Counted from the stretch's first letter, positions 2,560 through 61,443 are shown. The stretch: DNA of 64,000 bases from an uncultured bacterium (GCA_902797985.1 CADBUZ010000003.1:1-64000); one strand, 5' to 3'. Translations and numbers: made by a program. The notes: generated by a model not told the origin, from the letters alone.

Positions 2560-2591
2560 TATATAACGACTGACTAAAAATATTTTTGCTA
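2560..2591 (-). promoter_or_regulatory. repeated promoter-like element, copy 1
   Basis: Read on the minus strand: TAGCAAA, 15 bases, TCGTTATATA (8 of 10 match to ACTTTATATA). It ends 27 bases before the TTG start at 2532 and is one reason to prefer that start. Confidence 0.55.
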
Positions 2592-2634
2592 CCAAACAAA
2601 AATATTGTTACAAACAAAAATATTTTTATTGTAA

Positions 2635-3636
2635 TTAATACATTTTTATAAGATTTCTAACTTCAGTTAAAACCTTACCGGCTTCAACTCTTGCCTTTTG
2701 AGAACCAAGTTCTAAGATTTCTTTAACTTCATCAATATGATTTTCATAATAAGAACGTTTTTCTCTTATTTGTTCAAATCTTTCATTGATTTTAGCCCCA
2801 AGTTCTCTTTTACATTGAGCACAACCTCTCAAACCTTGTTCACATTCACTGCGGACAGTTGAGATTTCTTTTTCATCCCCAAATATTTTCCAATATTTAT
2901 AGGCAACTTCGCACTCATCAGGGTGTCCAAGGTCATCTTTTCTAAGACGACTTCTGTCTGTAATTGCTGTCATAACCTTTTTAGCAGTTACCTCAGCAGT
3001 ATCAGATATTTTTATATCATTATTATAAGATTTACCCATCTTATTACCATCAAGACCGCATATTAAAGAACAATTATTTAATTTTGGCTGTGGTTCATTG
3101 AAGAAATTTGTACTATATACATTATTAAATCTTCTTGCAATATCTCTTGTAAGCTCAACGTGTGCAACCTGATCAATTCCGACAGGAACTAAATCCGCAT
3201 TAAACATTAAAATATCTGCCGTCATCAAAACAGGATAACCCATCAAACCATAACCAATCTGGGAATTTGTTCCCTCTTTAGATTTTAAGATTTTAGCCAT
3301 ATCCTTTAAGGTTGGATCTCTCTCTACCCAATTTTGAGGAGTAATCATACTTAAATACAAATGTAGCTCAGCTATTTCAGGAACGTGAGATTGAACATAT
3401 ATTGTAGCTTTTTCCGGATCAATTCCTGATGCGAGCCAATCCATAGCAACATTCAAAACATCTTGTCTTAACTCATCAGTTTTATCATATTTTGTAGTTA
3501 AAGCGTGCCAATCTGCCACAAAGAAAAAGCATTCATAATTATTTTGAAGCTGAACCCAATTATCAATAACCCCTAAATAATGTCCTAAATGTAATTTTCC
3601 TGTCGGACGCATTCCTGATACTATTCTTTGTGCCAT
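2635..3636 (-). CDS. trpS: tryptophanyl-tRNA synthetase
   Basis: Charges tRNA-Trp (class I synthetase). The 333-residue product shows the HIGH-type motif as HLGH near the N-terminus (RIVSGMRPTGKLHLGHYLG) and the KMSKS-type loop as KMGKS, with the family's GIDQVAHVELTRDIARRFN segment. I start at the ATG at 3636 because AAGGAG lies seven bases upstream; an in-frame ATG six codons earlier has no good site. Divergent from the alcohol dehydrogenase. An ordinary promoter is likely; no copy of the repeated element is present. Confidence 0.95.
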   Translation of the reverse strand: MAQRIVSGMRPTGKLHLGHYLGVIDNWVQLQNNYECFFFVADWHALTTKYDKTDELRQDVLNVAMDWLASGIDPEKATIYVQSHVPEIAELHLYLSMITPQNWVERDPTLKDMAKILKSKEGTNSQIGYGLMGYPVLMTADILMFNADLVPVGIDQVAHVELTRDIARRFNNVYSTNFFNEPQPKLNNCSLICGLDGNKMGKSYNNDIKISDTAEVTAKKVMTAITDRSRLRKDDLGHPDECEVAYKYWKIFGDEKEISTVRSECEQGLRGCAQCKRELGAKINERFEQIREKRSYYENHIDEVKEILELGSQKARVEAGKVLTEVRNLIKMY

Positions 3637-3728
3637 AAATAATTTCTCCTTCAAAACTTATTTTATCATAAATCATTTATTTTTGTCTTATAATACTTTT
3701 AAGTGTTTATATGAGAAAGGAGAGTTCT

Positions 3729-4940
3729 ATGAGTCAAGTTATGTGGGAAAAAGATCAAGATATTTATTCTGTAAAAGAAATTAGAACAAGAACCAATGTT
3801 TATTTTGGGTGTGGTGCTATCCATAAAATAGAAGATATCGCAAAAGATTTTGCATCAAAAGGAATTGACAAAGTAGTTGTAATGTCAGGAAGAAACGCAT
3901 ATAAATCAACAGGAGCATGGGATGTTGTTGAAAAGGCATTAACCTCAAATGGCATTGGATATATAAATTATGATAAAGTTACTCCAAATCCGACAACTGA
4001 AGCAATTGATGAAGCAACTAAAATGGCTAAAGATTTTGGAGCAAAAGCTGTAATAACAATTGGCGGAGGTTCTCCTACCGATGCAGGTAAATCTGTTGCT
4101 ATTTTGCTTAAATATCCTGATAAAACAGGTGCTGATTTGTATGAATTTAAATTTAATGCGGAAAAAGCAGTTCCTATTGTTGCTATCAATTTAACGCATG
4201 GTACAGGTTCGGAAACAAACAGATTTGCTGTTGCAACTATTTTAGACAAAAATTACAAACCTGCAATTGCATACGATTGCATCTATCCAACATATGCAAT
4301 AGACGATCCTGAACTTATGAAGGGATTATCACCAAAACAAACAAGATATGTATCAATAGATGCAGTAAACCACGTTATAGAAGCAGCAACATCTAAAGTA
4401 ACTTCTCCTTATGCTGTAACTCTTGCAAGAGAAGTTATTGAAATGGTTGCAAAATACCTGCCAAAAGCAATAGCAAACCCTGAAGATTTAGAAGCAAGAT
4501 ATTATCTTTGCTATGCAGCAATGATGGGTGGCGTTTGCTTTGACAACGGATTATTACATTATACACACGCTCTTGAACACCCGCTAAGTGCTATGAAACC
4601 TGATTTTTCACACGGCTTGGGCTTAGCTATTTTACTTCCTGCAGTGATAAAAAATATATATCCTGCTTGTGCTAACACATTAGCTTATATCCTTGAACCT
4701 ATTGTAAAAGGGTTAGATCCTGACGCTAAAGATGCACAAAAAGCTTCTGAAGGAGTTTATGCATGGCTAAAATCCGTTGACGTACCTAATAAACTAAAAG
4801 ATGAAGGGTTTACAGAAGCTGACGTTAAAAAATTAACAGAACTTGCTTTCACAACTCCATCATTGGACGGTTTGTTAGGAATTGCACCTACAAAAGCTAC
4901 TAAAGAAGTAGTTGCTGAAATTTACAAAAATTCTTTATAA
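3729..4940 (+). CDS. iron-containing alcohol dehydrogenase
   Basis: Group III (Fe-type) NAD(P)-dependent alcohol dehydrogenase, 403 residues. The nucleotide-binding GGGSPTDAGKS is near residue 115. The metal ligands are visible as Asp and His in DAVNHVIEAA, then His in HALEHPLSAMKPDFSHGLG (two candidates). The start at 3729 follows AAAGGAG; an in-frame ATG at 3711 is too close to the promoter. Substrate is unknown; in a fermentative gut bacterium it would fit reduction of an aldehyde to an alcohol. It stands alone and ends in a strong terminator. Confidence 0.88.
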   Translation: MSQVMWEKDQDIYSVKEIRTRTNVYFGCGAIHKIEDIAKDFASKGIDKVVVMSGRNAYKSTGAWDVVEKALTSNGIGYINYDKVTPNPTTEAIDEATKMAKDFGAKAVITIGGGSPTDAGKSVAILLKYPDKTGADLYEFKFNAEKAVPIVAINLTHGTGSETNRFAVATILDKNYKPAIAYDCIYPTYAIDDPELMKGLSPKQTRYVSIDAVNHVIEAATSKVTSPYAVTLAREVIEMVAKYLPKAIANPEDLEARYYLCYAAMMGGVCFDNGLLHYTHALEHPLSAMKPDFSHGLGLAILLPAVIKNIYPACANTLAYILEPIVKGLDPDAKDAQKASEGVYAWLKSVDVPNKLKDEGFTEADVKKLTELAFTTPSLDGLLGIAPTKATKEVVAEIYKNSL

Positions 4941-4960
4941 AAATGAATACATAGTAAGAA

Positions 4961-4993
4961 ATCGGGTTGTTATAGAGCAACCCGATTTTATAC
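4961..4993 (+). terminator. intrinsic terminator after alcohol dehydrogenase
   Basis: Nine-bp stem ATCGGGTTG/CAACCCGAT with an 8-base loop, followed by TTTATACTATTTT. Confidence 0.85.
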
Positions 4994-5056
4994 TATTTTA
5001 TTTTAAATTCAAAATTAACTTATTTATGATAAAATGATAACGTAAAGGAGAAAAAG

Positions 5057-5302
5057 ATGACTTCACAATACTTACCACAGCAAAAAACAAGAACAGCGTT
5101 AGTTCTTTTTTTAAAAGGAGTAGCGACACCTGTGTTATTATATTTTGACAATCCGCAAGCTGTATATCTTGAAATGAAACAGCTGATGAAAAACCCATCA
5201 CCTGTTTTAGTAGAAAAAGAAGCTAATGGACCTGTTAAAAAAATAGCTTTCGTTTCTACCCAAATATCAGGAGTAGTTTTACAGGAAGAAACATATGTAT
5301 AA
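5057..5302 (+). CDS. hypothetical protein, 81 aa, first gene of fatty-acid cluster
   Basis: Small protein of unknown function with a good ribosome-binding site (AAAGGAG, 6-7 bases before ATG). It has a short hydrophobic stretch (TALVLFLKGVATPVLLYF) and a C-terminus STQISGVVLQEETYV. It overlaps the DUF177 gene by 8 bp, so the two are translationally coupled and probably functionally linked. No Cys pairs, no signal peptide. Confidence 0.75.
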   Translation: MTSQYLPQQKTRTALVLFLKGVATPVLLYFDNPQAVYLEMKQLMKNPSPVLVEKEANGPVKKIAFVSTQISGVVLQEETYV

Positions 5303-5780
5303 AATATCTATCGATGATATCGAACAAGAAAGAGATAAAACATTACACTATGAATTTGACGATGAATTACCTGAAATCAAGGCAGTAGTGAATGCAAGTC
5401 TGGATTTAATTTCATTAGGTGATGTAATAGAAGTCAAAGGTCATGTTAAGGGTTCAATAAAATTAGAATGTGACTTATGCCTTAAAGAATTTGAACAAAA
5501 ACTTGATTTTGACATAGATGAAATGTATGCAAAAGATTCACTTTATGAAGAATACGGACAAGAAACAGAACTCAAGGAAGGACAGTTTATAACTGACTTA
5601 AACGGTACAAATGAAATAGACATTTATGACTTATTGTATCAATCTGTAATATTACAGTTACCAAATAAAAAGGTTTGTGGTATAAATTGTAAAGGGGATA
5701 AATTTCTTCGTGATGATGAAGAATTTATCCAAGATGAGAGAATGGCTGTTTTTAAGTCGATTAAGATTGAAAAGAAATAG
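5295..5780 (+). CDS. yceD: DUF177 / YceD family protein
   Basis: 161 residues. DUF177 proteins are regularly encoded just before rpmF, and plant and bacterial members are implicated in 23S rRNA or ribosome maturation. The diagnostic Cys pairs are present: CDLCLKEF near residue 58 and CGINCKG near residue 135, likely binding a metal. Overlaps the upstream small gene by 8 bp and precedes rpmF by about 180 bp, a gap filled by a palindromic repeat. Confidence 0.87.
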   Translation: MYKISIDDIEQERDKTLHYEFDDELPEIKAVVNASLDLISLGDVIEVKGHVKGSIKLECDLCLKEFEQKLDFDIDEMYAKDSLYEEYGQETELKEGQFITDLNGTNEIDIYDLLYQSVILQLPNKKVCGINCKGDKFLRDDEEFIQDERMAVFKSIKIEKK

Positions 5781-5789
5781 TCATTTAAT

Positions 5790-5925
5790 TAAATTGAAAA
5801 TTGAAAATATCTTGGTCAACTTTGTTGATTATTGAACATCTTATAATATTATTTTAGGATTAGTTCAATTTTAGCCGATAGGCTACTAAATAATTTTCCA
5901 TTTTCCATTTATAAAAAGCGAAATA
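5790..5925 (+). repeat. palindromic intergenic element, copy A
   Basis: Begins with heptamer units (ATTGAAA), contains ATCTTGGTCAA, ATTGAAC...GTTCAAT and AGCCGATA, and ends in heptamers ATTTTCC. A diverged copy with the same order of blocks lies at 7495-7630. The A-rich start and ATTTTCC end are partly complementary, so the transcript could fold into a long hairpin. Confidence 0.7.
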
Positions 5926-5963
5926 TAAATAGTTAAAATAGATAAAAAGAAAGGCATAGAAAA

Positions 5964-6356
5964 ATGGCAGTACCAAAGAAAAGAACAGGGCATAGTGCTC
6001 AAGGCAAAAGAAGAGCAAATTGGAAGGCAACAAAGCCTGAAACAACCGTATGTTCAAATTGCGGACAACCTGTGTTGGCACATACAGTATGTACAGCATG
6101 CGGATATTATAAAGGACAACCTGTAAGTCTAAAAGATAAAGCAGCAGCAGAAAAAGAAGTAAAAAAACCTGCTAAGAAAGCAAAAGCAGAAGCTCCTGCA
6201 GAGGAAGCACCAAAAGCTGAAGAAACTGCGGTTGAAGAAGCTGAAAAAGCTCCTAAGAAAACTACAAGAAAAAAAGCTGCAGCTAGTGCAGATGAAAAAC
6301 CAAAAGCTAAAAAAACTACTAAAAAAGCAGTAGAAAAAGAAGATGCTGCTGAATAA
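5964..6356 (+). CDS. rpmF: 50S ribosomal protein L32 with long basic/acidic tail
   Basis: Residues 1-55 are a complete zinc-ribbon L32: MAVPKKRTGHSAQGKRRAN, then CSNCGQP...CTACGYYKG (four Cys). The family is usually about 57-60 residues; here a further 70 or so residues follow, a Lys/Ala/Glu/Pro-rich tail (runs such as KKPAKKAKAEAPAEEAPKAEE). There is no internal stop or frame change, so the tail is translated. It lies between yceD and plsX as in many bacteria. Confidence 0.92.
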   Translation: MAVPKKRTGHSAQGKRRANWKATKPETTVCSNCGQPVLAHTVCTACGYYKGQPVSLKDKAAAEKEVKKPAKKAKAEAPAEEAPKAEETAVEEAEKAPKKTTRKKAAASADEKPKAKKTTKKAVEKEDAAE

Positions 6357-6420
6357 GGTTGTAAAGTAGTTAAAGGAGCTATCTTTTAACTACTTAATCT
6401 TTTCGAAATAAGGGGAGAAC

Positions 6421-7479: not shown

Positions 7480-7494
7480 ATAAAATAAACTGAA

Positions 7495-7630: not shown

Positions 7631-7636
7631 ATTAAA

Positions 7637-7668
7637 AAAGTAGGCTGGGCATACTTGTCCAACAAATT
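7637..7668 (+). repeat. REP-like GTAGG hairpin, weak
   Basis: GTAGG is followed by an imperfect palindrome TGGGCA/TGTCCA (one G-U pair) and ACAAA. It lies just upstream of fabH. Confidence 0.35.
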
Positions 7669-7687: not shown

Positions 7688-8809
7688 ATGAGTAATTTTA
7701 CACCGGTAAAAATAGCAGGAGTTGGGTATTGCGTACCTCAAACGGTTGTTACTAATGATGATTTAACCAAATTATACGAAACCTCTGATGAATGGATTTA
7801 TACAAGAACAGGTATAAAAGAACGTCGTGTTGTATCAGGCAATGAAACTGCCATTGATTTAGGGCTTGATGCAGCAAAAAAAGCTTTAGAAAAATCGGGT
7901 ATAGAACCAAACAATATCGATTGTATTATTGCTGCAGCTTCTGTTCCTCCACAATTATATCCTACACTTGCTTGTACCCTGCAAGCTAAACTTGGAATAG
8001 AAAAAACTATTCCTGCCTTTGACCTTACTGCTGCTTGTACAGGATTAATATATGCTCTGCAAGTTGCCAGAGGCTTTATCCATTCAGGAATATACAAAAA
8101 CATTCTGATTGTTGCAGCAGACAACAATTCTAAAATAACCAATTGGGAAGATAGAGGAACATCTATTTTATTTGGCGATGGCGCCGGTGCAATGGTTTTG
8201 ACTGTTGCAGAAGATGGAATAGATGATATTTTATCAATAAAAATTAGTGCGAATGGTGCTATCGGACAAATGATTCAAACAAATATGCCATCTCAATGTT
8301 GTCCATTAGTAAAACAGGCTGACGAAGTAGGAAGCGGAAAAATAATTATGGATGGAAAAGAAGTTTATAAATTTGCCGTTACTACTGTTCCAAAATATGT
8401 TGAAGAATGTATAGAACTTTCAGGCTTGAGCGCTGAAGAGATTGATTATCTTATCCCTCATCAAGCAAATCAAAGAATTATTGAATCTATCCAAAAAAGA
8501 CTAAAATATAGTGATGATAAAGTAGTATCTAATATAAAATACTACGGTAACACATCTGCGGCATCTATCCCTATTGCATTAGTGGAAGGTGTAGAACAAG
8601 GAAAAATAAAACTGGGTTCAACTGCTGTTTGGTGCAAAAAATTGCACCCTACTCACTATTTGACGTTGACTAAAACTTATAAAACAAAAATCGGATATTT
8701 AAAAATCCGATTTTCGTTTTTAAAACATAGTTATATTAATATTTATAAATTATTCTGGCTTTTGAGCAGTTTCTTTAAGTTGCTGCAATCTTTCATGATG
8801 TTGTTTTAG
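7688..8809 (+). CDS. fabH: beta-ketoacyl-ACP synthase III with replaced C-terminus
   Basis: FabH condenses acetyl-CoA with malonyl-ACP to start fatty-acid synthesis. The catalytic triad is visible: Cys in DLTAACTGLIYAL, His in IPHQANQRI, Asn in [11 protein letters not shown]. After residue 314 (GSTAV, ending 8629) the frame leaves the family: the expected last strand [11 protein letters not shown] is missing. About 59 unrelated residues follow, running through a REP-like hairpin, a terminator and into the opposite-strand gene. The missing end is found at 10577-10629 beyond a 1.95-kb insertion. Loss of the C-terminal core strand probably inactivates it, unless the tail is cleaved or another FabH exists. 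Confidence 0.85.
   Translation: MSNFTPVKIAGVGYCVPQTVVTNDDLTKLYETSDEWIYTRTGIKERRVVSGNETAIDLGLDAAKKALEKSGIEPNNIDCIIAAASVPPQLYPTLACTLQAKLGIEKTIPAFDLTAACTGLIYALQVARGFIHSGIYKNILIVAADNNSKITNWEDRGTSILFGDGAGAMVLTVAEDGIDDILSIKISANGAIGQMIQTNMPSQCCPLVKQADEVGSGKIIMDGKEVYKFAVTTVPKYVEECIELSGLSAEEIDYLIPHQANQRIIESIQKRLKYSDDKVVSNIKYYGNTSAASIPIALVEGVEQGKIKLGSTAVWCKKLHPTHYLTLTKTYKTKIGYLKIRFSFLKHSYINIYKLFWLLSSFFKLLQSFMMLF
8531..8629 (+). repeat. 99-bp direct repeat within fabH, left copy
   Basis: Identical at every base to 10478-10576. It codes for fabH residues from about 282 to 314. The perfect identity indicates a recent duplication created with the insertion between the copies. Confidence 0.95.
8631..8652 (-). 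repeat. REP-like hairpin at left insertion border
   Basis: Perfect stem GGTGCAA/TTGCACC with a 4-base loop, followed on the plus strand by CCTAC, so on the minus strand it reads GTAGGGTGCAA. It begins one or two bases after the fabH repeat ends. Confidence 0.6.
8687..8719. terminator. bidirectional terminator
   Basis: Stem AAAATCGGAT/ATCCGATTTT with an 8-base loop. T-runs follow in both directions; it serves the leftward EF-hand gene and may stop transcription from truncated fabH. Confidence 0.75.
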
Positions 8810-9958
8810 TATATCTTTTGGGTTTTCACTTGGTCGCAATGCATCTTTTATATATTTTTCTTCTGATTTTAATTCTGAATCAGAAATATACGTTTGACTT
8901 GTAAAATTAGCAAGATGATTTAGCAAACTCATTTGTGTATCGTGGTCTTTTGATGACTCAATAATTTGTTGGCGTAATGTTGCTACTTTGTTAGGAATTT
9001 CAGTTGTAAAAAATGTTTTTGCACTTAAATTATCAGAAATTCGTTTTGATACTACATCAATTTCCTGTGTTTGTTGAGCATTATTTTTTATTTCATGAGT
9101 GAGTTTTGTTTGTGTCATTTCATGATTCAAATCACTATTTTTTCTTGTAGCTTCGTGCTGTTGATTAGTATTTTCCATAACAATACCTGCAGCATTATAA
9201 GTTGCATCAAGTTGAACACCCAGATTATAATCCATATGTTGATGTATTGCATTTGCTTCATCTCGTACTACACGAATAACTCTGTTTGCATTATTAAATA
9301 CAGCTCTAATTACTTGACCATTTGCTGTTCTTATTTCTTTAATAATGCCGTCTTCAACTTTACCAAGTTCATTTATAATAGTTGCTGTTCCGTCTTTTAA
9401 ATCTTGATTAAGTTTTTCTATAGATTCAAGAATTTTTTCTGTGTTTTTATCATTATGTTCATTTACAATTTGGGCAAAAGATTTATCCAACGCATTTTCA
9501 ACATCATCTGCCCAATTATCAAGTGCTTTTTTATATCCTTCTGCATCCCCTGCATAATCTGCCATATCGGGTCTGCCTGCAATTGCATCATTTAATATTT
9601 GAGAAGATTGCATTCCTTTTAATTTTTTAAATGCATTTATAACACGACGGTTTGCTTCACCTTCATCTGCTTTAACCTGTGCCATATTTTCTTTTCCAAA
9701 ATATGCACCATATAATTTTTCTTCTTCTTTTTGCGCTCTTTTTATATCTTTTGGATCATTACCTATGTAATTACCTTTGTTTGCCTTTTCTTGTTCTACC
9801 TTTAAACCTTCATCTTGGCGAAGATTTGCACCGTTAATAAATTGATTAAATAACTTTACTTCTTTTTCATCAATTAACAAATCATTATTTTGATCCGCCG
9901 CTAAAGCAAAGGCTTTTACTGCCCCTTCTAAATTATTGATATTAATACCACCTGTCAT
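8750..9958 (-). CDS. EF-hand, coiled-coil protein of unknown function
   Basis: 402 residues. Near residue 22 a canonical calcium-binding EF-hand loop is present, DQNNDLLIDEKE (Asp1, Asn3, Asp5, Asp9, Glu12). The rest is almost entirely charged and Gln/Asn-rich helix, with coiled-coil character from about residue 150 to 330 and no membrane segment. The start has AAAGGAG and a perfect copy of the repeated promoter-like element 36 bases upstream. It is the main cargo of the insertion that breaks fabH. Function unknown; calcium-dependent assembly or surface/scaffold role are guesses. Confidence 0.75.
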   Translation of the reverse strand: MTGGININNLEGAVKAFALAADQNNDLLIDEKEVKLFNQFINGANLRQDEGLKVEQEKANKGNYIGNDPKDIKRAQKEEEKLYGAYFGKENMAQVKADEGEANRRVINAFKKLKGMQSSQILNDAIAGRPDMADYAGDAEGYKKALDNWADDVENALDKSFAQIVNEHNDKNTEKILESIEKLNQDLKDGTATIINELGKVEDGIIKEIRTANGQVIRAVFNNANRVIRVVRDEANAIHQHMDYNLGVQLDATYNAAGIVMENTNQQHEATRKNSDLNHEMTQTKLTHEIKNNAQQTQEIDVVSKRISDNLSAKTFFTTEIPNKVATLRQQIIESSKDHDTQMSLLNHLANFTSQTYISDSELKSEEKYIKDALRPSENPKDILKQHHERLQQLKETAQKPE

Positions 9959-9994
9959 AAAAGTACTCCTTTCTTCTTTTTAAACTTCACTTTT

Positions 9995-10026
9995 ATATAA
10001 AGTTTTTTAATATTGACCAATTTCAA
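9995..10026 (-). promoter_or_regulatory. repeated promoter-like element, copy 2
   Basis: Minus strand: TGAAATT, 15 bases, ACTTTATATA. It ends 36 bases before the EF-hand gene start. Confidence 0.7.
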
Positions 10027-10082
10027 TAATATCAACATGTTGTAACATGTCTTTACAATTTATTAGCCATTTAAATAAATAA

Positions 10083-10117
10083 TTAGTTGATTAAACTAAT
10101 TAGCCAAGTAGTATAAT
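10083..10117 (+). promoter_or_regulatory. promoter and candidate operator of XRE gene
   Basis: Inverted repeat TTAGTT-5-AACTAA overlaps a TTGATT -35-like box; TATAAT lies 19 bases on and only 8 bases before the ATG, so the mRNA should be leaderless. The palindrome is a natural autoregulatory operator for the XRE protein. Preserved at 20582-20616. Confidence 0.5.
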
Positions 10118-10125
10118 CTTTAGTT

Positions 10126-10440
10126 ATGGATTATCAAAAGTTATTAAATTCAAATATTAAACAATTGAGAGTTAAACAAGGCTTAACACAAGAAGAATTT
10201 GCTGAAAGAATTGGAATCAGCATACAAGGGTTATCCAATCTTGAAAGAAACAGATATCAGCCCACTTCTGCTACAATAGATAAAATTTGCAACGTATTTC
10301 AAATTACGCCTATAGAGTTATTACTAACTAAAAATAAAACAAATGATGATTTAATGGAAAAAATAAATTCTTTATTAAAAAGTTATTCACTTAAAAAATT
10401 AAAACAAATTTATGAAATAATTTTAATTTTAAACAAATAA
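10126..10440 (+). CDS. XRE-family HTH transcriptional regulator
   Basis: 104 residues. A Cro/CI-type helix-turn-helix fills residues 8-65 (IKQLRVKQGLTQEEFAERIGIS, then IQGLSNLERNRYQPTSATI). A short basic C-terminal helix (KSYSLKKLKQIYEIILIL) probably dimerises. No ribosome-binding site: it appears leaderless. It lies inside the insertion between the two fabH repeats and is duplicated, in deleted form, at 20625-20729. Confidence 0.88.
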   Translation: MDYQKLLNSNIKQLRVKQGLTQEEFAERIGISIQGLSNLERNRYQPTSATIDKICNVFQITPIELLLTKNKTNDDLMEKINSLLKSYSLKKLKQIYEIILILNK

Positions 10441-14630: not shown

Positions 14631-14662
14631 TGAAATTAAAGATTTCTCAAATACTTTACATG
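14631..14662 (+). promoter_or_regulatory. repeated promoter-like element, copy 3
   Basis: TGAAATT, 15 bases, ACTTTACATG (8 of 10). An AAGGAG follows four bases on, pointing to a small gene at 14680. Confidence 0.55.
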
Positions 14663-18065: not shown

Positions 18066-18239
18066 TTAAGTTGTTTTTTTGTATAATCCTAAGTTGAATC
18101 GCTGCATATTGTTCACTGCCATTATTCGCATTTCTTCAAACAATACCGTCGATTTGTCTTCTGAATTTTCGACTCTCATCAATTCTTCAGAAATTTCATT
18201 TGCTTTCGCATTTATGTCGTATGTGTTTAATACTGACAT
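18066..18239 (-). CDS. small hypothetical protein, 57 aa
   Basis: Starts MSVLNTYDINAKANEISEEL and ends MQRFNLGLYKKTT; predicted mostly helical with an acidic middle. A GAGAGAG stretch precedes the ATG. A perfect copy of the repeated promoter-like element lies 50 bases upstream and a terminator follows the stop, so a discrete small transcript is well supported. Function unknown. The rest of 17947-18483 is the two terminators' and promoters' DNA and otherwise blank. Confidence 0.65.
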   Translation of the reverse strand: MSVLNTYDINAKANEISEELMRVENSEDKSTVLFEEMRIMAVNNMQRFNLGLYKKTT

Positions 18240-18289: not shown

Positions 18290-18321
18290 TATATAAAGTA
18301 TATAAAAAGTATCTAATTTCA
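18290..18321 (-). promoter_or_regulatory. repeated promoter-like element, copy 4
   Basis: Minus strand: TGAAATT, 15 bases, ACTTTATATA (exact). Ends 50 bases before the 57-aa gene. Confidence 0.7.
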
Positions 18322-20589: not shown

Positions 20590-20740
20590 TTAAACTAATT
20601 AGTCAAGTAGTATAATCTTTAGTTATGGATTATCAAAAGTTATTAAATTCAAATAAATTTTTATTAAAAAGTTATTCACTTAAAAAATTAAAACAAATTT
20701 ATGAAATAATTTTGATTTTAAACAAATAATACGATTTTTG
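20574..20740 (+). mobile_element. XRE-gene unit, internally deleted copy
   Basis: Same flanks as 10076-10455, including the operator palindrome, TATAAT and the terminal ATACGATTTTTGAG. Followed by a GTAGG hairpin after about ten bases. Confidence 0.5.
20625..20729 (+). pseudogene. XRE gene with 210-bp in-frame deletion
   Basis: The first ten codons (MDYQKLLNSN) are joined directly to the last 24 or so (LLKSYSLKKLKQIYEIILIL), removing the whole helix-turn-helix. Frame is kept, leaving a 34-residue peptide. Short AAAT repeats at the junction suggest slippage. The surviving C-terminal helix could in principle still pair with the intact regulator. Confidence 0.75.
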
Positions 20741-25301: not shown

Positions 25302-25325
25302 CCTATTTTGTACAATTTTATAAAT

Positions 25326-25351
25326 AAAAAAAACTCCTCTTTTTGAGGAGT
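25326..25351 (-). terminator. terminator, stronger leftward
   Basis: Stem ACTCCTC/GAGGAGT; on the minus strand it is followed by eight T, so it fits the short leftward transcript starting near 25425. Confidence 0.75.
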
Positions 25352-25428
25352 AAATTTTTCATTTAGGAAGGGTTTCTCTCTTAATTTAAACGGTTCTTGT
25401 TTTCGATAGTAATCATTCTTATCGTATA
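25326..25428 (-). ncRNA. short leftward transcript, 11-codon ORF
   Basis: Between the exact promoter-like element at 25429-25460 and the terminator there are only about 100 bases. The sole frame is 25416-25381, MITIENKNRLN, with a poor ribosome site. Either a small RNA or a very small peptide gene. Confidence 0.4.
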
Positions 25429-30679: not shown

Positions 30680-30711
30680 TAAATAAAACCTACACATAAA
30701 AATATTTGCTA
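30680..30711 (-). promoter_or_regulatory. repeated promoter-like element, copy 6
   Basis: Minus strand: TAGCAAA, 15 bases, GTTTTATTTA (7 of 10). Confidence 0.45.
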
Positions 30712-31742: not shown

Positions 31743-31820
31743 TGTAAAAATAACAGATAAAATTAACAAAAATATTGAATTAAATGTATTAATCCAATAA
31801 CAATATATTGGAGAAATACT

Positions 31821-47705: not shown

Positions 47706-49364
47706 ATGGGTATGGCAGCATCACAAGCAAGATACTTACAGCTATCTGCAAGAAAAACTAACACAGAGTACGAAGGGCAACAGCTTAATCAAGAGCGTGT
47801 TGTACTCGCTAATCGTACGGCAGATTTATTCAATCAGATGTTAACGATGTCTGTTCCTACTTGTCCTGATAGTAATGATTTTACCAAAGTTCAGTATTCT
47901 TGGTCTGATGGTTATAATGATGCCGTTCTTTCTGATTATTATCAATTGAGTACAGCTGATGAAGAATATAATTATGTTGTAACAAGTTATCATTATGAAG
48001 ATGTTTATACAGGTTCTCGCAGACAAATAAACGACCCTAAAATCCAATCTGATAGAACTGTAGAGTACAAATACGATAGTACTTATAATAAAAATTTAGA
48101 ATTTATTGTATCTGCTATGCAGTACAATTTAAAAGATGATACATATATCATTATGAATGAAAAAAGAGTCCAAAAAACTTTTGAAAGAGCATTAGATGGT
48201 GGGGATGTTCGTCTTGAGTTAGATTCTATATTTGGAAGAACTAAAAAAGCGTCATCGCAAGATTTCACGTTGGACGAAGCAACCGGAAATTATATATATA
48301 ATACCGGTGAAGTCGATGAAGAAGGTAAACCAATAACACTTACATATGTTCCAGTTGATACTGAATTGGATGATGAAAAGGTTAAATTATTAAAAGCAAC
48401 ATATAAAACAGAATATAACCCTGAAAACGCATATTTTTACAATGAAGAAACAGGTACTTTCTTTGTTGATGAAGGCATTGAAAGATTAAAACTCAACATG
48501 GGTATGCCGCCTGAAATTACAATTAGAAAACAAGATGACGGCACAGTTTATTATACCGATGGTGAAAGATATGTTACGTTAGCTGAGTTACAAAATATTA
48601 CACCTGAAAATAACAAGCTTGTTTTGAAACAAGCAATTGAGAGCATGTATTTTTCTAATTTTGCATATGTTGGAAATTGTAAGCTTCATCAATTAACATT
48701 GGAAGATTATCAAGACGAAGATATTCAGACAGAATTGAGACAAATCATTATTGATATGCATGATGAAGAAAAAGGTCATAAAGTTTCTGCAGCAAATTTG
48801 GATGCTTGCTTTGATCCTGTTACAGATGAGTATAAAGGTGGAATTTATACTTTTAAAATGAATAATGTAGTATATTATACAACATTGGCTGATTTGGAAG
48901 CATCTGCGCAAAGTGCATTTGAAAATGATAACCAAAAAATTATTGCAGATAATAATATTGATCCTCAAACAACTAAACTTGCTTATTATAAAGCAGTTTA
49001 TCTAAATACAAAAATTGAAGATACAACAAAAGCATTGTTAGAAACGGATGGTAAAGGAAGATTTAAATCTGTCAGATTTGAGGATGATTCAACTGTATAC
49101 ACATTAAATACAGAAACAATAACTGATGAAGATGCATACAGAGATGCAATGAATCAGTATTATTACAAACAAGAAAAATATGATAAAGCAATAAGAGATA
49201 TCAATGCTAAAACAGAATTGATACAAGCTCAAGACAGAACTCTTGAGTTGAGAATGAAACAGCTTGATACCGAGCAAAACGCTTTACAAACAGAGATGGA
49301 AGCAGTTAAAAAGGTTATCAGCAAGAACGTCGAAACGACATTCAAGACATTCTCCGGCGGTTAA
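47706..49364 (+). CDS. large protein with conserved coiled termini
   Basis: 552 residues, no known family. N-terminus MGMAASQARYLQLSARKTNT with a following helix (QQLNQERVVLANRTADLFNQM); C-terminus is a long coiled coil (LIQAQDRTLELRMKQLDTEQ onward). The 430-residue middle is acidic and beta/loop-rich. The same termini, without the middle, make up the 114-residue protein at 50898-51242. No signal peptide. This terminal-helix/variable-middle plan is that of flagellin-like and needle proteins; an appendage or secreted role is inference. GATAGGAG before ATG. Confidence 0.65.
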   Translation: MGMAASQARYLQLSARKTNTEYEGQQLNQERVVLANRTADLFNQMLTMSVPTCPDSNDFTKVQYSWSDGYNDAVLSDYYQLSTADEEYNYVVTSYHYEDVYTGSRRQINDPKIQSDRTVEYKYDSTYNKNLEFIVSAMQYNLKDDTYIIMNEKRVQKTFERALDGGDVRLELDSIFGRTKKASSQDFTLDEATGNYIYNTGEVDEEGKPITLTYVPVDTELDDEKVKLLKATYKTEYNPENAYFYNEETGTFFVDEGIERLKLNMGMPPEITIRKQDDGTVYYTDGERYVTLAELQNITPENNKLVLKQAIESMYFSNFAYVGNCKLHQLTLEDYQDEDIQTELRQIIIDMHDEEKGHKVSAANLDACFDPVTDEYKGGIYTFKMNNVVYYTTLADLEASAQSAFENDNQKIIADNNIDPQTTKLAYYKAVYLNTKIEDTTKALLETDGKGRFKSVRFEDDSTVYTLNTETITDEDAYRDAMNQYYYKQEKYDKAIRDINAKTELIQAQDRTLELRMKQLDTEQNALQTEMEAVKKVISKNVETTFKTFSGG

Positions 49365-50538: not shown

Positions 50539-50570
50539 AGCAATTATCATGGTTTGCATGTTTTTATATA
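50539..50570 (+). promoter_or_regulatory. repeated promoter-like element, copy 8
   Basis: AGCAATT, 15 bases, TTTTTATATA (8 of 10), 31 bases before the ATG at 50602. Confidence 0.5.
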
Positions 50571-50601: not shown

Positions 50602-50871
50602 ATGTTAGACTCAGTAAAGGCCTCCCTCAAGCGAATAAAAAACTTTGTGAATTTTACCAGAGCATTCTTTATCCGGAAAAATCCATTTAAGTTATTCCTT
50701 GATGAGATAGTGAACTCCTTAAAAGAAATGTTCAGTATCAGACAAAAATTGAAGATGGCTCAATATAGAGTCAATTATCACAAACATCAGTTAAGTAAGA
50801 TGGAAAGTCTGATAGCAGAAAGTAATGAACACACATTCTTGAAAGGAAAGAACTTAAACGAAACAAGGTAA
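50602..50871 (+). CDS. small basic coiled protein, 89 aa
   Basis: Helical, Lys/Arg-rich (DSVKASLKRIKNFVNFTRAF; KLKMAQYRVNYHKHQLSKME). I use the ATG at 50602; a TTG five codons upstream (50587) is possible. Unknown function, same cluster. Confidence 0.55.
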   Translation: MLDSVKASLKRIKNFVNFTRAFFIRKNPFKLFLDEIVNSLKEMFSIRQKLKMAQYRVNYHKHQLSKMESLIAESNEHTFLKGKNLNETR

Positions 50872-50897: not shown

Positions 50898-51242
50898 ATG
50901 GGCGTTCTTGCATCAACAATGCGTTTAATGACTCTTACGGCAACTAAGAACGATTTAGAGTTCAGGTTGATGAGCATCACAGAAAAGATGTCTGCTTTAA
51001 CTGCTCAAATAGCGGAAAAAGACGAGTTCTGTGCTGATTTGGATCCGGAAAGTACTACCGTTAGACAAATGGAAGCTGAAAAGAAACGGCTTAATGAACT
51101 TGAAAGAAAGCTTGATATGCAGCAAAAAATGTTGCAAGCCAGATTACAACAAGTTATGCAAGAAATGCAGGCATGTCAACAAATGCTCGGTGCTGATATC
51201 CAAAGCGGTATGTTTAGCTACGGTATGGGCATGGGCAGATAA
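50898..51242 (+). CDS. small coiled-coil protein sharing termini with 552-aa protein
   Basis: 114 residues. N-terminus MGVLASTMRLMTLTATKNDL parallels MGMAASQARYLQLSARKTNT of the 47706 product; the C-terminal coil (ELERKLDMQQKMLQARLQQV) parallels that protein's end. AAAAGGTG before ATG. Ends with a Met/Gly-rich tail and a terminator. Possibly the short core subunit of the same assembly. Confidence 0.65.
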   Translation: MGVLASTMRLMTLTATKNDLEFRLMSITEKMSALTAQIAEKDEFCADLDPESTTVRQMEAEKKRLNELERKLDMQQKMLQARLQQVMQEMQACQQMLGADIQSGMFSYGMGMGR

Positions 51243-51912: not shown

Positions 51913-51944
51913 GTTATAAAACACGTAAATATTTTTTTTTGCTA
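51913..51944 (-). promoter_or_regulatory. repeated promoter-like element, copy 9
   Basis: Minus strand: TAGCAAA, 15 bases, GTTTTATAAC (6 of 10). Confidence 0.35.
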
Positions 51945-53437: not shown

Positions 53438-53469
53438 TCTATAATGCATCAAATATAAAAATTTTGCTG
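53438..53469 (-). promoter_or_regulatory. repeated promoter-like element, copy 10
   Basis: Minus strand: CAGCAAA, 15 bases, GCATTATAGA (7 of 10), 34 bases before the 107-aa gene. Confidence 0.4.
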
Positions 53470-55046: not shown

Positions 55047-55078
55047 TATATAAAGTATTTCTATTTTAAGAAATTGCC
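55047..55078 (-). promoter_or_regulatory. repeated promoter-like element, copy 11
   Basis: Minus strand: GGCAATT, 15 bases, ACTTTATATA. Divergent from the copy at 55115. Confidence 0.65.
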
Positions 55079-55114
55079 ATTTATGTTAAGGAATGTAACA
55101 TAAATTTCCATGCT

Positions 55115-55146
55115 TGAAATCATAAAAATTTTTAAACCTTTATATA
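55115..55146 (+). promoter_or_regulatory. repeated promoter-like element, copy 12
   Basis: TGAAATC, 15 bases, CCTTTATATA (9 of 10), 20 bases before the ATG at 55167. Confidence 0.6.
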
Positions 55147-55929: not shown

Positions 55930-56508
55930 TTAGACGAAATAATACATTTGACTTTGAAAATTATCAGACAATGACTCAAAATTATTTTTTTTATAAAAAT
56001 CAATTGCACTTGGAACAGAATTTACAAAAATATCTTTTTGGTTATACGTTTCTTTAAGAAAATCCAGCATCGCTGTCCCAATTTTCTTATACTCACGTTG
56101 ACCATTTCTTTGTGTTTTCAAATCCGGTCTTACTTCCAAATAACTTAATTCATTATCACAAGAATCTAATTCAGAAAAAAGTGCAACACCAATAATATCT
56201 TCTGCTCTTAAATTATCAAATTTATTTTTTTGTTTTGTAATAGCGAGATAATGTTCTTTTTCAACATTAGGATAATTATTGTCTTTTGTTGCATCAAAAA
56301 ATATGCTTGATATATGTGTAGCACCATTTAAATTCCAATTTACGGATGCTTTATATAATGCCTTTAAATCAGAAGAATCATTTTTATCTAATTCAACCAA
56401 GGCTACTTTTTCATTTTTATATGTATCCTTATCACGCTTTAAGACGGGAACATCTTTTATATGAGTTGCTGTAAAATTTATACGATTCATATTTGATAGA
56501 AAACTCAT
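55930..56508 (-). CDS. GNAT acetyltransferase with F-x-A tag
   Basis: 192 residues from the ATG at 56508. The frame continues 22 codons further, but those codons lie in the yebC terminator hairpin, so a start there is unlikely. N-terminus MSFLSNMNRINFTATHIKD carries the short tag. GNAT features: acceptor-binding start, SYLEVRPDLKTQRNGQREYKKIGTAML (loop variant) and VPSAIDFYKKNNFESL. Substrate unknown. Confidence 0.65.
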   Translation of the reverse strand: MSFLSNMNRINFTATHIKDVPVLKRDKDTYKNEKVALVELDKNDSSDLKALYKASVNWNLNGATHISSIFFDATKDNNYPNVEKEHYLAITKQKNKFDNLRAEDIIGVALFSELDSCDNELSYLEVRPDLKTQRNGQREYKKIGTAMLDFLKETYNQKDIFVNSVPSAIDFYKKNNFESLSDNFQSQMYYFV

Positions 56509-56527
56509 AAAAATATTTTTTGCCACA

Positions 56528-56560
56528 AAAAAACTGTGAATTAAAAATCCACAGTTTTTG
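56528..56560 (-). terminator. terminator of yebC
   Basis: Stem AAAAACTGTG/CACAGTTTTT, with T-runs on both strands. Confidence 0.8.
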
Positions 56561-56579
56561 TTTATTGTTTTCAATATTA

Positions 56580-57329: not shown

Positions 57330-57527
57330 GTTTACCTCTCTTTATTCTTTTCCATATTCATAATATCAAATCAATGAAAAATTTAAAACGAATTTTATAA
57401 AATTATTATAATTCTTAAAATTTTAATAATTTTTTCTAAACCATTCAATATATATTTTATATTTTTTATTGAAAATATTTAAAAATTTTCCGTTATTAAA
57501 AATACAATTATCACAAGGAGGAATATT

Positions 57528-57701
57528 ATGGCAAGAATTATTGAAACAACAACAAAAGGAAGACGCACTATAAAACTTTCCACAGATGATATTTTATCCA
57601 TAGTCCAAGAATACCAACAATTAACAAAAGGTTTAAAATATCTTGAAAACATCAGAGATATTCTTGAAAATAAAATTATATATATCCCAGAAAGTAATTA
57701 A
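57528..57701 (+). CDS. small hypothetical protein, 57 aa
   Basis: MARIIETTTKGRRTIKLSTD at the start, then a helix DILSIVQEYQQLTKGLKYLE and IIYIPESN at the end. A near-perfect AAGGAGGA lies seven bases before the ATG, the best site in the region. A TTGAAAAT plus 15 bases plus GTTATTAAAA upstream is a weak promoter-like match. Too short for most gene finders; unknown function. Confidence 0.7.
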   Translation: MARIIETTTKGRRTIKLSTDDILSIVQEYQQLTKGLKYLENIRDILENKIIYIPESN

Positions 57702-57712
57702 TGTAGTATAGA

Positions 57713-58312
57713 TTATTTTATTTTATATGTATAAATATCATCGGGGGTGACTTCTATTTCTTTATAATCATATCCCAATAAATAATTCACAACTTCTTTT
57801 GGGCTATTTGCAAAGTAGTAGAGTTTATCTGCACTATTTTTGGCAAAACTTTGTGAAATAATATTGTCAAAAAAGTTTTTTAAATTATCAAAAAAGTTAT
57901 TTGTATTCAAAAAAACTATTGGTTTATTATTGTATCCTAACTGTTTTTGTACGATAATTTCTGCAACTTCATCTAATGTTCCGAATCCGCCTGCCATAGC
58001 TATTACTCCATCAGATAATTCGTCTAATTTAGCTTTTCTGTTTCGCATGTTATCTGTTAAATAGTATTCGTCGCATTCTTCTGAATATACTCCAAAACTA
58101 TGTAGTTTTTTCGGCATTACGCCATATATTTTTGCATTGTTTTGTTTGGCTGATTTTGCTATAGAATACATAGTGCCTACATTACTTCCCCCATATACAA
58201 GGTTAAAGCCGGCTTGCCCCAGTAATTCTCCTAATGCTTCTGCGTCTTCATAATATTTTTTATCTAAAGTATTAGATGATGAACAAAATACGCATATATT
58301 TTTTTTATTCAT
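57713..58312 (-). CDS. LOG family protein (TIGR00730)
   Basis: 199 residues. FCSSSNTLDKKYYEDAEALG, YGGSNVGTMYSIAK and the signature GGFGTLDEV (PGGxGT-type) mark the LOG nucleoside-monophosphate phosphoribohydrolase family. Start at 58312 after GGAG; the frame opens four codons earlier with TTG. Confidence 0.88.
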   Translation of the reverse strand: MNKKNICVFCSSSNTLDKKYYEDAEALGELLGQAGFNLVYGGSNVGTMYSIAKSAKQNNAKIYGVMPKKLHSFGVYSEECDEYYLTDNMRNRKAKLDELSDGVIAMAGGFGTLDEVAEIIVQKQLGYNNKPIVFLNTNNFFDNLKNFFDNIISQSFAKNSADKLYYFANSPKEVVNYLLGYDYKEIEVTPDDIYTYKIK

Positions 58313-58345
58313 AAAGCACTCCAATAACTTTACAAGTACAATAAT

Positions 58346-60577
58346 TTAGGTCGTTTGTTTATAACCGCATGCACGGTTTGAACATTCGATTACTTCACCG
58401 CTTTTTAGGGTGCGTTTTGTTAATAGAGAACCGCAATCCGGACATTTTTCACCTGTTGGTTCATTCCATAGAACATAGTCACAATCAGGATATTTGTTAC
58501 AGCCGTAAAATACTACACCCCTTTTTGATTTTCTCTCTATAATTTCACCTTCTCCACATTTAGGACAAGTTACTCCTGTGGATTTTACAATGCTTTTTCT
58601 GTCTTTGCAGTTTTCACATTCTGTATATCTGCCGTAAGGACCAATTTTTATGTATAAGTCGCCGCCGCATTTTTCACATTTTTCTTCTGATTTTTCGGGT
58701 GCTTCATTGTTATTTATAACTGCACCGGATTTATCTAAAGATAAAATAGTTTTACATTCAGGATAACCTGAACAACCTAAAAATTGACTTCCAAAACGGT
58801 TCGTTCTGACTATCATTTTACGTCCGCAATTTGGACAAGTTACATCACTTTCAATTCTTACTTTTTGAGCATTAGACATAACATCATTTACTGTATCAAT
58901 AAATGGGGTATAAAAATCTTGTAACACTTGATTCCATACAGCTTTTTTATCCGCTATTTTATCAAGCTTTTCTTCCATTCCTGCAGTAAATGCATAGTCC
59001 ATAATATCTGCAAACTGTGTAACAAGCTGTTTACATACTGTTTTACCTAAGAAAGTAGGGACTAATGCTTTATCTTGTTTTTCAACGTACTGACGTTGTT
59101 GTATTTTTGTAATAATGCTTGCATAAGTAGAAGGACGACCAATGCCGTACTCTTCTAACGCTTTAACTAATGATGCTTCTGAATATCGTGGAGGCGGTTG
59201 GGTGAAATGTTGTTTAGGAAGAATCTCTTTCATATTTAATTTGTCACCTTCTGATAAATCAGGAATTTTTGTTTCTGCTCCATCTTCAGCATCTTGATAT
59301 AATTTCAAGAACCCATCAAATAAAACTTTACTTGTGCCAACTCTAAGCTCATAATCACCCGCAGTAATATCAACCGTTTTATTTGCGATTTTAGCTGGCG
59401 CCATCTGTGACGACATGAATTTATTCCATATCAGTTTATATAATCTGTACTGTTCATTAGTTAAATACGGTTTTAAACTTTCAGGTGTTCTGTCAGGATA
59501 AGATGGTCTGATGGCTTCGTGAGCATCTTGAACATTCTTTTTCCCTTTTGCATAATTATTTGGGGTACTTGGGTAATATTTTTCGCCATAATTATTTATA
59601 ATATAATCTTTCGCCATTGCCTGTGCATCATCAGATATACGGACACTATCGGTTCTCATATAAGTGATTAAACCGACAGAGCCTTCTTCCAGCTCAATAC
59701 CTTCATATAATTTTTGTGCAATTTGCATTGTTTTAGAAACGCCATATCCTAATTTGGAACTTGCTTCCCGTTGTAAAGTTGATGTTATAAATGGTGCGGT
59801 TGGTTTTCTTGATGTTTCTCTTTTTGCAACATTTGATACAACATATTCAATCTCAGGACTTTCAAGTGCCTCTTTTATTTTTAAAGCTTCTTCTTCATTG
59901 CTTATTTCAATTTTACTTCCGATGAATTTTGTTAATTCTGCATCAAATCTTTTGCCTTCTTTTTCCAGTTGTGCAGTGATTGTCCAGTATTCAACAGGAA
60001 TAAATGCATCAATTTCTTCTTCTCGTTCACATATCATTCTAAGTGCAACTGATTGAACTCGACCGGCGGAAAGATGATAATTTCCTAATTGTTTCCACAA
60101 AACAGGTGATAATCTATATCCTACTAATTTGTCAAGAATTTGTCTTGTCTGTTGTGCTTGTACTTTATCCATATCTATTTGACGAGGATGGTCAACAGCA
60201 TATTTTACAGCTTTTGGAGTAATTTCATTAAACTCTATTCTATATATTTTGTCTTCAGGCACTTTTAATACTTCTTTTACGTGCCATGCAATTGCTTCCC
60301 CTTCTCGGTCAGGGTCGGATGCTAAATATATTTTGTCTGATTTTTTCGCTATTTCATTTAGTTTTGATACAACTTTTCTTTTTTCCGGAAGAATGACAAA
60401 TGATGGCTTAAAGCCGTTATTAACATCAAATCCTAATTCATTCTTCGAAGATAAATCTCGTACATGACCAAGACTCGCTTCTATAGAAAAGTTGTTCCCT
60501 AAAATCTTTTTAATGGTTTTTGATTTTGCAGGTGACTCAACTATTACTAATGCTTTTTCTTTTGATGTTGTTCCCAT
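58346..60577 (-). CDS. topA: DNA topoisomerase I
   Basis: 743 residues, type IA. TOPRIM start KALVIVESPAKSKTIKKILG, active-site Tyr in GLITYMRTDSVRIS (near residue 305) and four C-terminal zinc fingers (CPNCGRKM, CEKCGGDL, CPKCGEGE, CPDCGSLL). Relaxes negative supercoils. Confidence 0.96.
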   Translation of the reverse strand: MGTTSKEKALVIVESPAKSKTIKKILGNNFSIEASLGHVRDLSSKNELGFDVNNGFKPSFVILPEKRKVVSKLNEIAKKSDKIYLASDPDREGEAIAWHVKEVLKVPEDKIYRIEFNEITPKAVKYAVDHPRQIDMDKVQAQQTRQILDKLVGYRLSPVLWKQLGNYHLSAGRVQSVALRMICEREEEIDAFIPVEYWTITAQLEKEGKRFDAELTKFIGSKIEISNEEEALKIKEALESPEIEYVVSNVAKRETSRKPTAPFITSTLQREASSKLGYGVSKTMQIAQKLYEGIELEEGSVGLITYMRTDSVRISDDAQAMAKDYIINNYGEKYYPSTPNNYAKGKKNVQDAHEAIRPSYPDRTPESLKPYLTNEQYRLYKLIWNKFMSSQMAPAKIANKTVDITAGDYELRVGTSKVLFDGFLKLYQDAEDGAETKIPDLSEGDKLNMKEILPKQHFTQPPPRYSEASLVKALEEYGIGRPSTYASIITKIQQRQYVEKQDKALVPTFLGKTVCKQLVTQFADIMDYAFTAGMEEKLDKIADKKAVWNQVLQDFYTPFIDTVNDVMSNAQKVRIESDVTCPNCGRKMIVRTNRFGSQFLGCSGYPECKTILSLDKSGAVINNNEAPEKSEEKCEKCGGDLYIKIGPYGRYTECENCKDRKSIVKSTGVTCPKCGEGEIIERKSKRGVVFYGCNKYPDCDYVLWNEPTGEKCPDCGSLLTKRTLKSGEVIECSNRACGYKQTT

Positions 60578-60680
60578 TTTTCTCCCATAAAATACGTGGT
60601 CGCTTGTTGTGACATATCCTTATTTATATATTGTAAATGGAACATAGAAAAAGTAAAATTATAAATTTTCTATTAAATAG

Positions 60681-60706
60681 AAAAAGACGGATTTGAATCC
60701 GTCTAA
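60681..60706 (-). terminator. terminator of GNAT gene
   Basis: Stem AGACGGATT/AATCCGTCT with leftward T-run. Confidence 0.8.
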
Positions 60707-60732
60707 TACACATAAAACCTAACTAACCTTAA

Positions 60733-61380
60733 TTATAATAAATTTCCGTTATACATCATTAATTTTTTGATGTGATTTTTAGGAAGGTACATTATTCCTG
60801 TTACTTTTGGAGAATCTGTATTTTCATTTTTTCTTAACCATTCTTCCATAGTTTCATTTAATGATTTGTCTACAAATCTGAATCCTAATTTGTAGAAAAA
60901 TCCTGCAGGAGAGGTTTGTCCGTCTGTGATTTCTGCCAAAACAACAAGTCTGCCTTCTGTTTCTTTATCTGCTAAGCTTCTTTCTAAAACAGTTTGAACA
61001 GCCTTTGTGCCTGCACCTTTATGTCTTTGTGGTGCTTCGATGCTATCAATTTTATAACAATGTTTTAGATATGTATAAATCTTTTTAGAAGGAACTTTGA
61101 ATGTAATTAAACGGTATCTGTTCATAAGTTCCATATTTTTTTCTAATTCTTTTGATGATGCTTCAACTTCTACTTTGTATGTATAATCTTCAGTCCATTC
61201 TCCTTGTACTAAATATTTATCTGAAGATTTAATTTTGTGGAATTTTATTTTAGCGTCTTGAACTTTTTCAGGTTTTTTTTCTTCTTCTTTTTTTCCGTTG
61301 AATTTAACAGGAACAGTTGCTCCAACGGTTGAACCGTGTCCCGGACCTATTGTGATATTGTAATTAGCTGAACTTACCAT
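60733..61380 (-). CDS. GNAT acetyltransferase with F-x-G tag
   Basis: 215 residues. N-terminus has the tag as VPVKFNGKKEEEKK near residue 28, followed by a Lys/Glu linker. The acetyl-CoA loop is APQRHKGAGTKAVQ and a late motif SPAGFFYKLGFRFVD is typical of GNATs. Substrate unknown. An exact copy of the repeated promoter-like element ends 31 bases upstream. Confidence 0.75.
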   Translation of the reverse strand: MVSSANYNITIGPGHGSTVGATVPVKFNGKKEEEKKPEKVQDAKIKFHKIKSSDKYLVQGEWTEDYTYKVEVEASSKELEKNMELMNRYRLITFKVPSKKIYTYLKHCYKIDSIEAPQRHKGAGTKAVQTVLERSLADKETEGRLVVLAEITDGQTSPAGFFYKLGFRFVDKSLNETMEEWLRKNENTDSPKVTGIMYLPKNHIKKLMMYNGNLL

Positions 61381-61411
61381 ATCTCTTAATTCCTTATCCC
61401 ATCAACTTACT

Positions 61412-61443
61412 TATATAAAGTTTTATATATAGTAGAAATTGCC
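61412..61443 (-). promoter_or_regulatory. repeated promoter-like element, copy 13
   Basis: Minus strand: GGCAATT, 15 bases, ACTTTATATA. Confidence 0.7.

What the first reader, a model, noticed from the sequence alone, without database searches (positions are those of the whole stretch)
2560..61443. A repeated bipartite promoter-like element marks a lineage-specific regulon
Seen directly: a seven-base box (TGAAATT/C, GGCAATT, AGCAATT or TAGCAAA), exactly 15 bases, then a box close to ACTTTATATA. Strong copies (minus strand unless noted): 9995, 18290, 25429, 55047, 61412, and plus 55115; good copies: 2560, plus 14631, plus 49356, plus 50539, 30680, 53438; weaker: 51913, plus 50245. All lie before hypothetical or tagged genes or tiny transcripts, mostly 10-50 bases upstream of the start. 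trpS, topA, gltP and the fatty-acid and translation genes lack it. Geometry fits -35 and -10 boxes. Inference: an alternative sigma factor or activator controls a coherent set of lineage-specific proteins.
Basis: partly seen in the sequence, partly recalled or inferred. Interest (0 to 1): 0.88.

Follow-up and report, generated by a model that had tools for sequence, protein, structure and literature searches.

The report
Family-wide promoter class in gut melainabacteria
A repeated DNA control element, found in dozens of copies in the genomes of non-photosynthetic gut relatives of cyanobacteria, looks like a dedicated promoter with a binding site for RpaB, the regulator that controls photosynthesis genes in cyanobacteria, here placed in front of lineage-specific proteins of unknown function.

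Summary
The core observation holds and extends well beyond the window. The exact element [GT][CA]AATT-N15-ACTTTATATA occurs at spacing 15 (5 in window, 5 in 370 kb outside) and almost nowhere at other spacings. The whole genome has 47 copies with at most 1 mismatch against 5 in a reversed control, and all Gastranaerophilaceae searched are enriched. Before one orthologous gene it is present at 71 of 78 loci, against 0 of 78 reversed.

It resembles the cyanobacterial HLR1 box, and the genome encodes an RpaB ortholog with an identical recognition helix.

Best model: RpaB-activated promoters read by an alternative sigma factor. The leading sigma candidate, a divergent group-2 factor, is not in this draft assembly. 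FliA/sigma28 is disfavoured by flagellin promoters. Export of the products through the retained flagellar apparatus is conjecture. No transcription data exist.

The parts
9994..10024 (-). class I core promoter GAAATT-N15-ACTTTATATA
   Evidence: 29.2 bits; exact match
10041..10056 (-). HLR1-like direct repeat GTAAAG-N4-GTTACA
8750..9958 (-). gene downstream, 402 aa, no Pfam family
18290..18320 (-). class I core promoter
   Evidence: 34.1 bits
18336..18351 (-). HLR1-like direct repeat GTTAAC-N4-GTAACA
18066..18239 (-). gene downstream, 57 aa
25429..25459 (-). class I core promoter
   Evidence: 26.2 bits
25475..25490 (-). HLR1-like direct repeat GTAAAG-N4-ATTACA
25325..25422 (-). putative small RNA ending in a hairpin with T run; ends inferred
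   Evidence: sequence
55047..55077 (-). class I core promoter
   Evidence: 43.5 bits
54924..55040 (-). putative small RNA ending in a hairpin with T run; ends inferred
   Evidence: sequence
55084..55100 (.). HLR1-like repeat shared by the two divergent promoters
55116..55146 (+). class I core promoter
   Evidence: 14.7 bits
55167..55505 (+). gene downstream, 112 aa
61412..61442 (-). class I core promoter
   Evidence: 24.8 bits
61459..61474 (-). HLR1-like direct repeat TTTACA-N4-TTTACA, 12 of 12 half-site positions
60733..61380 (-). gene downstream, 215 aa, no Pfam family
14632..14662 (+). class I core promoter, weaker
   Evidence: 13.7 bits
14601..14616 (+). HLR1-like direct repeat GTAAAG-N4-GTTACA
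50540..50570 (+). class I core promoter, weaker
   Evidence: 11.7 bits
50507..50522 (+). HLR1-like direct repeat ATTAAG-N4-GTTACG
50602..50871 (+). gene downstream, 89 aa
2560..2591 (-). class II promoter TAGCAAA-N15-TCGTTATATA
30680..30711 (-). class II promoter
51913..51944 (-). class II promoter before MTVNFTGIKN... (188 aa)
53438..53469 (-). class II promoter (CAGCAAA)
56494..56525 (-). class II promoter (TGGCAAA) before MNRINFTATH...
31764..31795 (+). class II promoter, weaker (TAACAAA)

Best explanation
The element is the core of an activator-dependent promoter class of the family. Box 1 ([GT][CA]AATT) and box 2 (ACTTTATATA), exactly 15 bases apart, are the -35 and -10 elements for an alternative sigma factor, with transcription inferred to start about 6-7 bases after box 2. 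A tandem repeat TGTWAM-N4-TGTWAM, inferred to lie about 52-70 bases upstream of the start, is an HLR1-type site bound by the RpaB ortholog, placed about where RpaB activates in cyanobacteria. A sister class with TAGCAAA as -35 shares the upstream half-sites. Together they control a regulon of lineage-specific proteins without Sec-like N-termini, plus some small transcripts. The sigma factor is most likely one of the primary-like group-2 factors, with a divergent fourth one ('type 4', altered regions 2.4 and 4.2) as first candidate. Shown by sequence: the elements, their spacing, their conservation and the RpaB orthology. Inferred: promoter activity, RpaB binding, sigma identity and the fate of the proteins.
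For: Unique spacing inside and outside the window; 47 against 5 genome-wide and enrichment in all 35 family genomes searched; matrix 56 against 2 at 12 bits or more in 895 kb (matrix trained on part of these sites); intergenic placement, median 38 nt before a start codon; the motif before 71 of 78 orthologous genes, 0 in reverse, with boxes conserved and flanks not. Upstream repeat 8 SD over shuffles, strongest at period 10, at fixed position. RpaB equivalog passed at 360 bits against a cut-off of 330, the two other OmpR-type regulators not; recognition helix DTRVVDVHISRLR identical to cyanobacterial RpaB. HLR1 consensus and activating position from PMC13421787 and PMC11633204. Type-4 sigma: changed residues at positions that read -12/-13 and -35 in sigma70 (residue roles from own knowledge), not found in the class member without the motif.
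Against: No transcript or binding data. Many upstream repeats match HLR1 only in part: 15 of 58 reach 10 of 12 positions, 2.8 expected. The second half-site is degenerate before the orthologous gene. Type-4 sigma is not in this assembly, although its neighbourhood in a congener maps close to a contig end; families with few motifs also carry a version of it.
Confidence: 0.6

Rival explanations
1. The promoters are read by the FliA/WhiG (sigma28) ortholog, whose specificity drifted after flagellin was lost.
For: FliA is kept in a genome without flagellin, is present in nearly all relatives and has D-K/R-x-R where FliA and WhiG of other bacteria have D-E-x-R; no canonical sigma28 sites are enriched (3 against 3); 15-base spacing is also that of sigma28 promoters (own knowledge).
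Against: In relatives that have both flagellin and the motif, the flagellin upstream regions lack the motif, and several carry sigma28-like TAAA-N15-NNCG[AT]TA by eye. The changed residue also occurs in families with few motifs.
Confidence: 0.12
2. An ECF factor or the SigF-like factor reads the boxes.
For: Box 1 with its T-rich run resembles ECF -35 elements such as TGAAAC-TTTT (own knowledge); ECF-A is in nearly all genomes.
Against: ECF-B is missing in a 99% complete genome that has the motif (G022); the SigF-like factor is not found at E 1e-20 in G015, 98% complete; ECF-A also occurs in the relative without the motif.
Confidence: 0.13
3. The housekeeping holoenzyme starts at these sites with the help of the activator, and boxes 1 and 2 are partly activator contacts.
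For: RpaB-activated promoters of cyanobacteria use primary-type sigma factors (own knowledge); TTGAAATT sites contain a near -35 hexamer.
Against: Box 2 offers no TANNNT hexamer in good register to box 1 and is far more conserved than sigma70 -10 boxes.
Confidence: 0.13
4. The copies are dispersed repeats or mobile elements rather than independent promoters.
For: Several sites lie near contig ends and a few are near-identical copies.
Against: Spacer and flanks differ between nearly all copies; orientation and distance to starts are uniform; the motif is conserved before orthologous genes.
Confidence: 0.02

Closest known systems
RpaB-HLR1 regulon of cyanobacteria (PMC13421787, PMC11633204)
   Same: Orthologous regulator with identical recognition helix; tandem TTACA-type half-sites, period 10; upstream position close to the activating range -66 to -45.
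   Different: Targets are not photosynthesis genes; half-sites are looser (TGTWAM); coupled to an unusual -35/-10 pair.
Sigma28 (FliA) promoters
   Same: A short -35 box, 15 bases, a long -10 box.
   Different: Boxes differ (TAAA/GCCGATAA by own knowledge) and flagellin genes of relatives do not use this motif.
E. coli aer promoter, CRP plus sigma28 (PMC2859248)
   Same: An activator bound upstream of an alternative-sigma promoter (site centred at -49.5 there).
   Different: Different activator and boxes; a single promoter, not a regulon.
WalR and PhoP direct-repeat boxes (own knowledge)
   Same: Direct repeats of TGTWAH or TTWACA type read by OmpR-family regulators.
   Different: Period about 11 there, 10 here.

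Membership tests
RpaB response regulator | passes the curated RpaB equivalog model NF045944 | tested here: met
   360.3 bits, cut-off 330
RpaB response regulator | DNA-recognition helix of cyanobacterial RpaB | tested here: met
   DTRVVDVHISRLR identical in eight orthologs, not in the two other regulators of the genome
HLR1 element | KTTACAWW-N2-KTTACAWW | tested here: inconclusive
   period-10 repeat highly significant, 12 of 12 positions at 61459..61474, but only 15 of 58 sites reach 10 of 12
HLR1 element | activating position -66 to -45 from the start | not testable with these tools
   transcription start is inferred only; would give about -70 to -52
HLR1 element | bound by RpaB | not testable with these tools
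   needs a binding assay
Sigma28 (FliA) promoter | TAAA-N15-GCCGATAA consensus | tested here: not met
   canonical sites not enriched; motif boxes differ
Sigma28 (FliA) promoter | used by flagellin genes | tested here: not met
   none of 20 flagellin upstream regions carries the motif
Sigma70 housekeeping promoter | TTGACA-N17-TATAAT | tested here: not met
   box 2 ACTTTATATA without a TANNNT hexamer at standard spacing from box 1
Type III secretion substrates | no Sec signal, N-terminus rich in S/T/N and poor in L/I/K | tested here: inconclusive
   0 of 40 hydrophobic N-termini against 18.7%; S+T+N+G 0.31 against 0.247, p = 0.0002; composition alone does not show export

The most novel reading that the evidence does not exclude
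In Gastranaerophilales the photosynthesis regulator RpaB was rewired to a dedicated sigma factor with changed promoter specificity, and the pair controls a family-wide set of proteins exported through a flagellar apparatus that has lost its filament.
Probability: 0.2. Interest if true: 0.88.

Novelty: new variant of a known kind. Interest (0 to 1): 0.72.

Why it matters
Non-photosynthetic Melainabacteria keep RpaA, RpaB and NblS, and since 2013 it has been unknown what for (PMC3787301: 'may have another function'; PMC4040986; PMC5877343). The promoter class gives RpaB a concrete set of predicted targets in gut bacteria and turns that question into a binding experiment. It also supplies a promoter signature that groups otherwise featureless lineage-specific genes into one regulon, and a clear reason to look for the sigma factor that reads it.

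Tried and rejected
FliA as the sigma factor: attractive from phylogeny and region 2.4, disfavoured by the flagellin promoters. SigF-like L037: fast evolving and not found in G015 (98% complete), which has the motif. ECF-B: missing in genomes with the motif. Pfam on ten proteins of the window (most of them motif-linked) gave no hit over a curated cut-off. Rfam gave no hit in the window and only tRNAs in five loci, two of which hold small-transcript candidates. Refining the class II matrix by iteration lost specificity, so only the seed matrix is quoted. A first site scan had a filter error and returned nothing (redone). No structure prediction was run: without ortholog alignments a model of these proteins would say little.

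Full report
Observation. Eight stand out (11.7 to 43.5 bits, none reached by the reversed window) and six do not. Spacing 15 is unique: 6 hits with box 2 at one mismatch or fewer and none at any other spacing from 5 to 30. In 370 kb of the same genome that had no part in choosing the boxes there are 5 exact hits at spacing 15 and one at all others. The window lies in contig C3 of a 1.86 Mb draft genome. With at most one mismatch that genome holds 47 sites against 5 for the pattern read backwards.

Anatomy. Aligning 41 sites gives G/T, C/A, A, A, T, T (then a T-rich run), 15 bases, then ACTTTATATA with a nearly invariant C, then tATGTAAG. The 3' extension suggests a start at the purine 6-7 bases after box 2; this is inference. 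Sites are mostly intergenic, and the next start codon is 38 nt away in the median. Two sites in the window, 25459(-) and 55077(-), precede a hairpin with a T run within about 80-120 bases and no sizeable ORF, so small RNAs are likely products.

A third element. Upstream of box 1 lie two copies of TGTWAM, 10 bases apart, at -35..-31 and -25..-21. The period-10 repeat scores 8 standard deviations above dinucleotide shuffles, and periods 8, 9, 11, 12 and 13 score less. The divergent promoters at 55077(-) and 55116(+) share one such site. This is close to HLR1, KTTACAWW-N2-KTTACAWW, the site of cyanobacterial RpaB, which activates from about -66 to -45 (PMC13421787; PMC11633204). The site at 61459..61474 matches all 12 half-site positions.

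The regulator. The genome has three OmpR-type regulators. One passes the curated RpaB equivalog model and the other two do not. Orthologs run through the phylum, at about 61-74% identity for the best match in other classes, and the recognition helix is identical in the eight that were read. That RpaB and its relatives persist in Melainabacteria is known; their targets are not (PMC3787301, PMC4040986, PMC5877343).

Two classes. Several of these genes encode proteins with an N-terminal NFTG-like stretch (MTVNFTGIKN, MTVSFTGVKN, MINKINFTGRE, MTINFTANL). Upstream half-sites lie at about the same distance.

Conservation. All 35 family genomes searched are enriched in class I; families f7, f4 and f6 are enriched less, f2, f3 and f5 little, and one other member of the class not at all. 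A ribbon-helix-helix gene of the regulon has relatives in many Gastranaerophilales genomes: 71 of 78 loci with enough upstream sequence carry the motif above 9 bits and none in reverse. In 70 aligned cases the boxes, a stretch just downstream and the upstream TGTTAA are conserved while the region beyond -45 is not. A few genomes contribute two loci, and related genomes are not independent.

Which sigma factor. Seven sigma70-family genes are in the assembly: RpoD, two primary-like factors, FliA/WhiG, a SigF-like factor and two ECF factors. FliA fits by phylogeny and by a changed region 2.4. It fails a direct test: 20 flagellin upstream regions of relatives lack the motif, and several carry sigma28-like sites. 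ECF-B and probably the SigF-like factor are excluded by genomes that have the motif without them. A fourth primary-like factor, found in sampled genomes of most families of the order, has WWIKQxxFK in region 2.4 and VTKECIRQTE in region 4.2, changes at residues that read -12/-13 and -35 in E. coli sigma70 (residue roles from own knowledge). It is my first candidate. It is not in this assembly; the congener's gene neighbourhood ends here close to a contig end, which permits but does not prove a gap.

The regulated proteins. They have few known domains; a sample of ten window proteins, most of them motif-linked, gave no Pfam hit over a curated cut-off. None of 40 has a hydrophobic N-terminus against 18.7% of other proteins, and their first 25 residues are rich in S, T, N and G. 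The genome keeps a flagellar export core (FliE, FliF, a weak FliG, FliH, FlhA) but has no flagellin match. Export of the regulon's products through that core is a conjecture, not a result.

Verdict. The promoter class is real (about 0.95). An HLR1-type activator site read by RpaB is likely (about 0.65). Type-4 sigma as the partner is the best of several candidates (about 0.4). The combined statement is rated 0.6 because it leaves the sigma assignment open.

Noticed in passing
L081:10638-16720 (G000 C19) and L083:7956-9416 (G000 C32): A flagellar export core (FliE, FliF, weak FliG, FliH, FlhA) is kept in a genome without flagellin, and a second, shorter FlhA-like gene with an unrelated N-terminal part sits elsewhere.
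   Followed up: partly
window 47706-49364 and 50898-51242; L080:9269-10792; L058:16731-17240: Proteins that start MG-x-x-AS-x-x-R-like (MGMAASQARYLQLSARK, MGVLASTMRLMTLTATK, MGLAVSQVRLLALTNRK, MGFLMMLARKIQLQDRK) look like one divergent family; only the last is preceded by a class I site.
   Followed up: no
L062:14937 and L047:5086: Two nearly identical copies of a class I promoter plus about 140 bases of downstream sequence without an ORF, possibly a duplicated small RNA; no Rfam match.
   Followed up: partly
L119-L148 and L179-L197 (FliA/WhiG orthologs): Nearly all FliA/WhiG orthologs of the order have K or R in place of E in the D-E-x-R stretch of region 2.4 found in FliA and WhiG of other bacteria, while sigma28-like flagellin promoters persist.
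   Followed up: partly
window 10095-10126 and 20594-20626: Two copies of a stretch ATTAACTAATTAG(T/C)CAAGTAGTATAATCTTTAGTTATGGATTATCAAAA, one before a helix-turn-helix gene at 10126.
   Followed up: no
L074:16200-16989 (end of G000 C9): The contig ends in low-complexity and repeat-like sequence 770 bases after a gene that in a congener lies about 1.5 kb from the type-4 sigma gene.
   Followed up: partly
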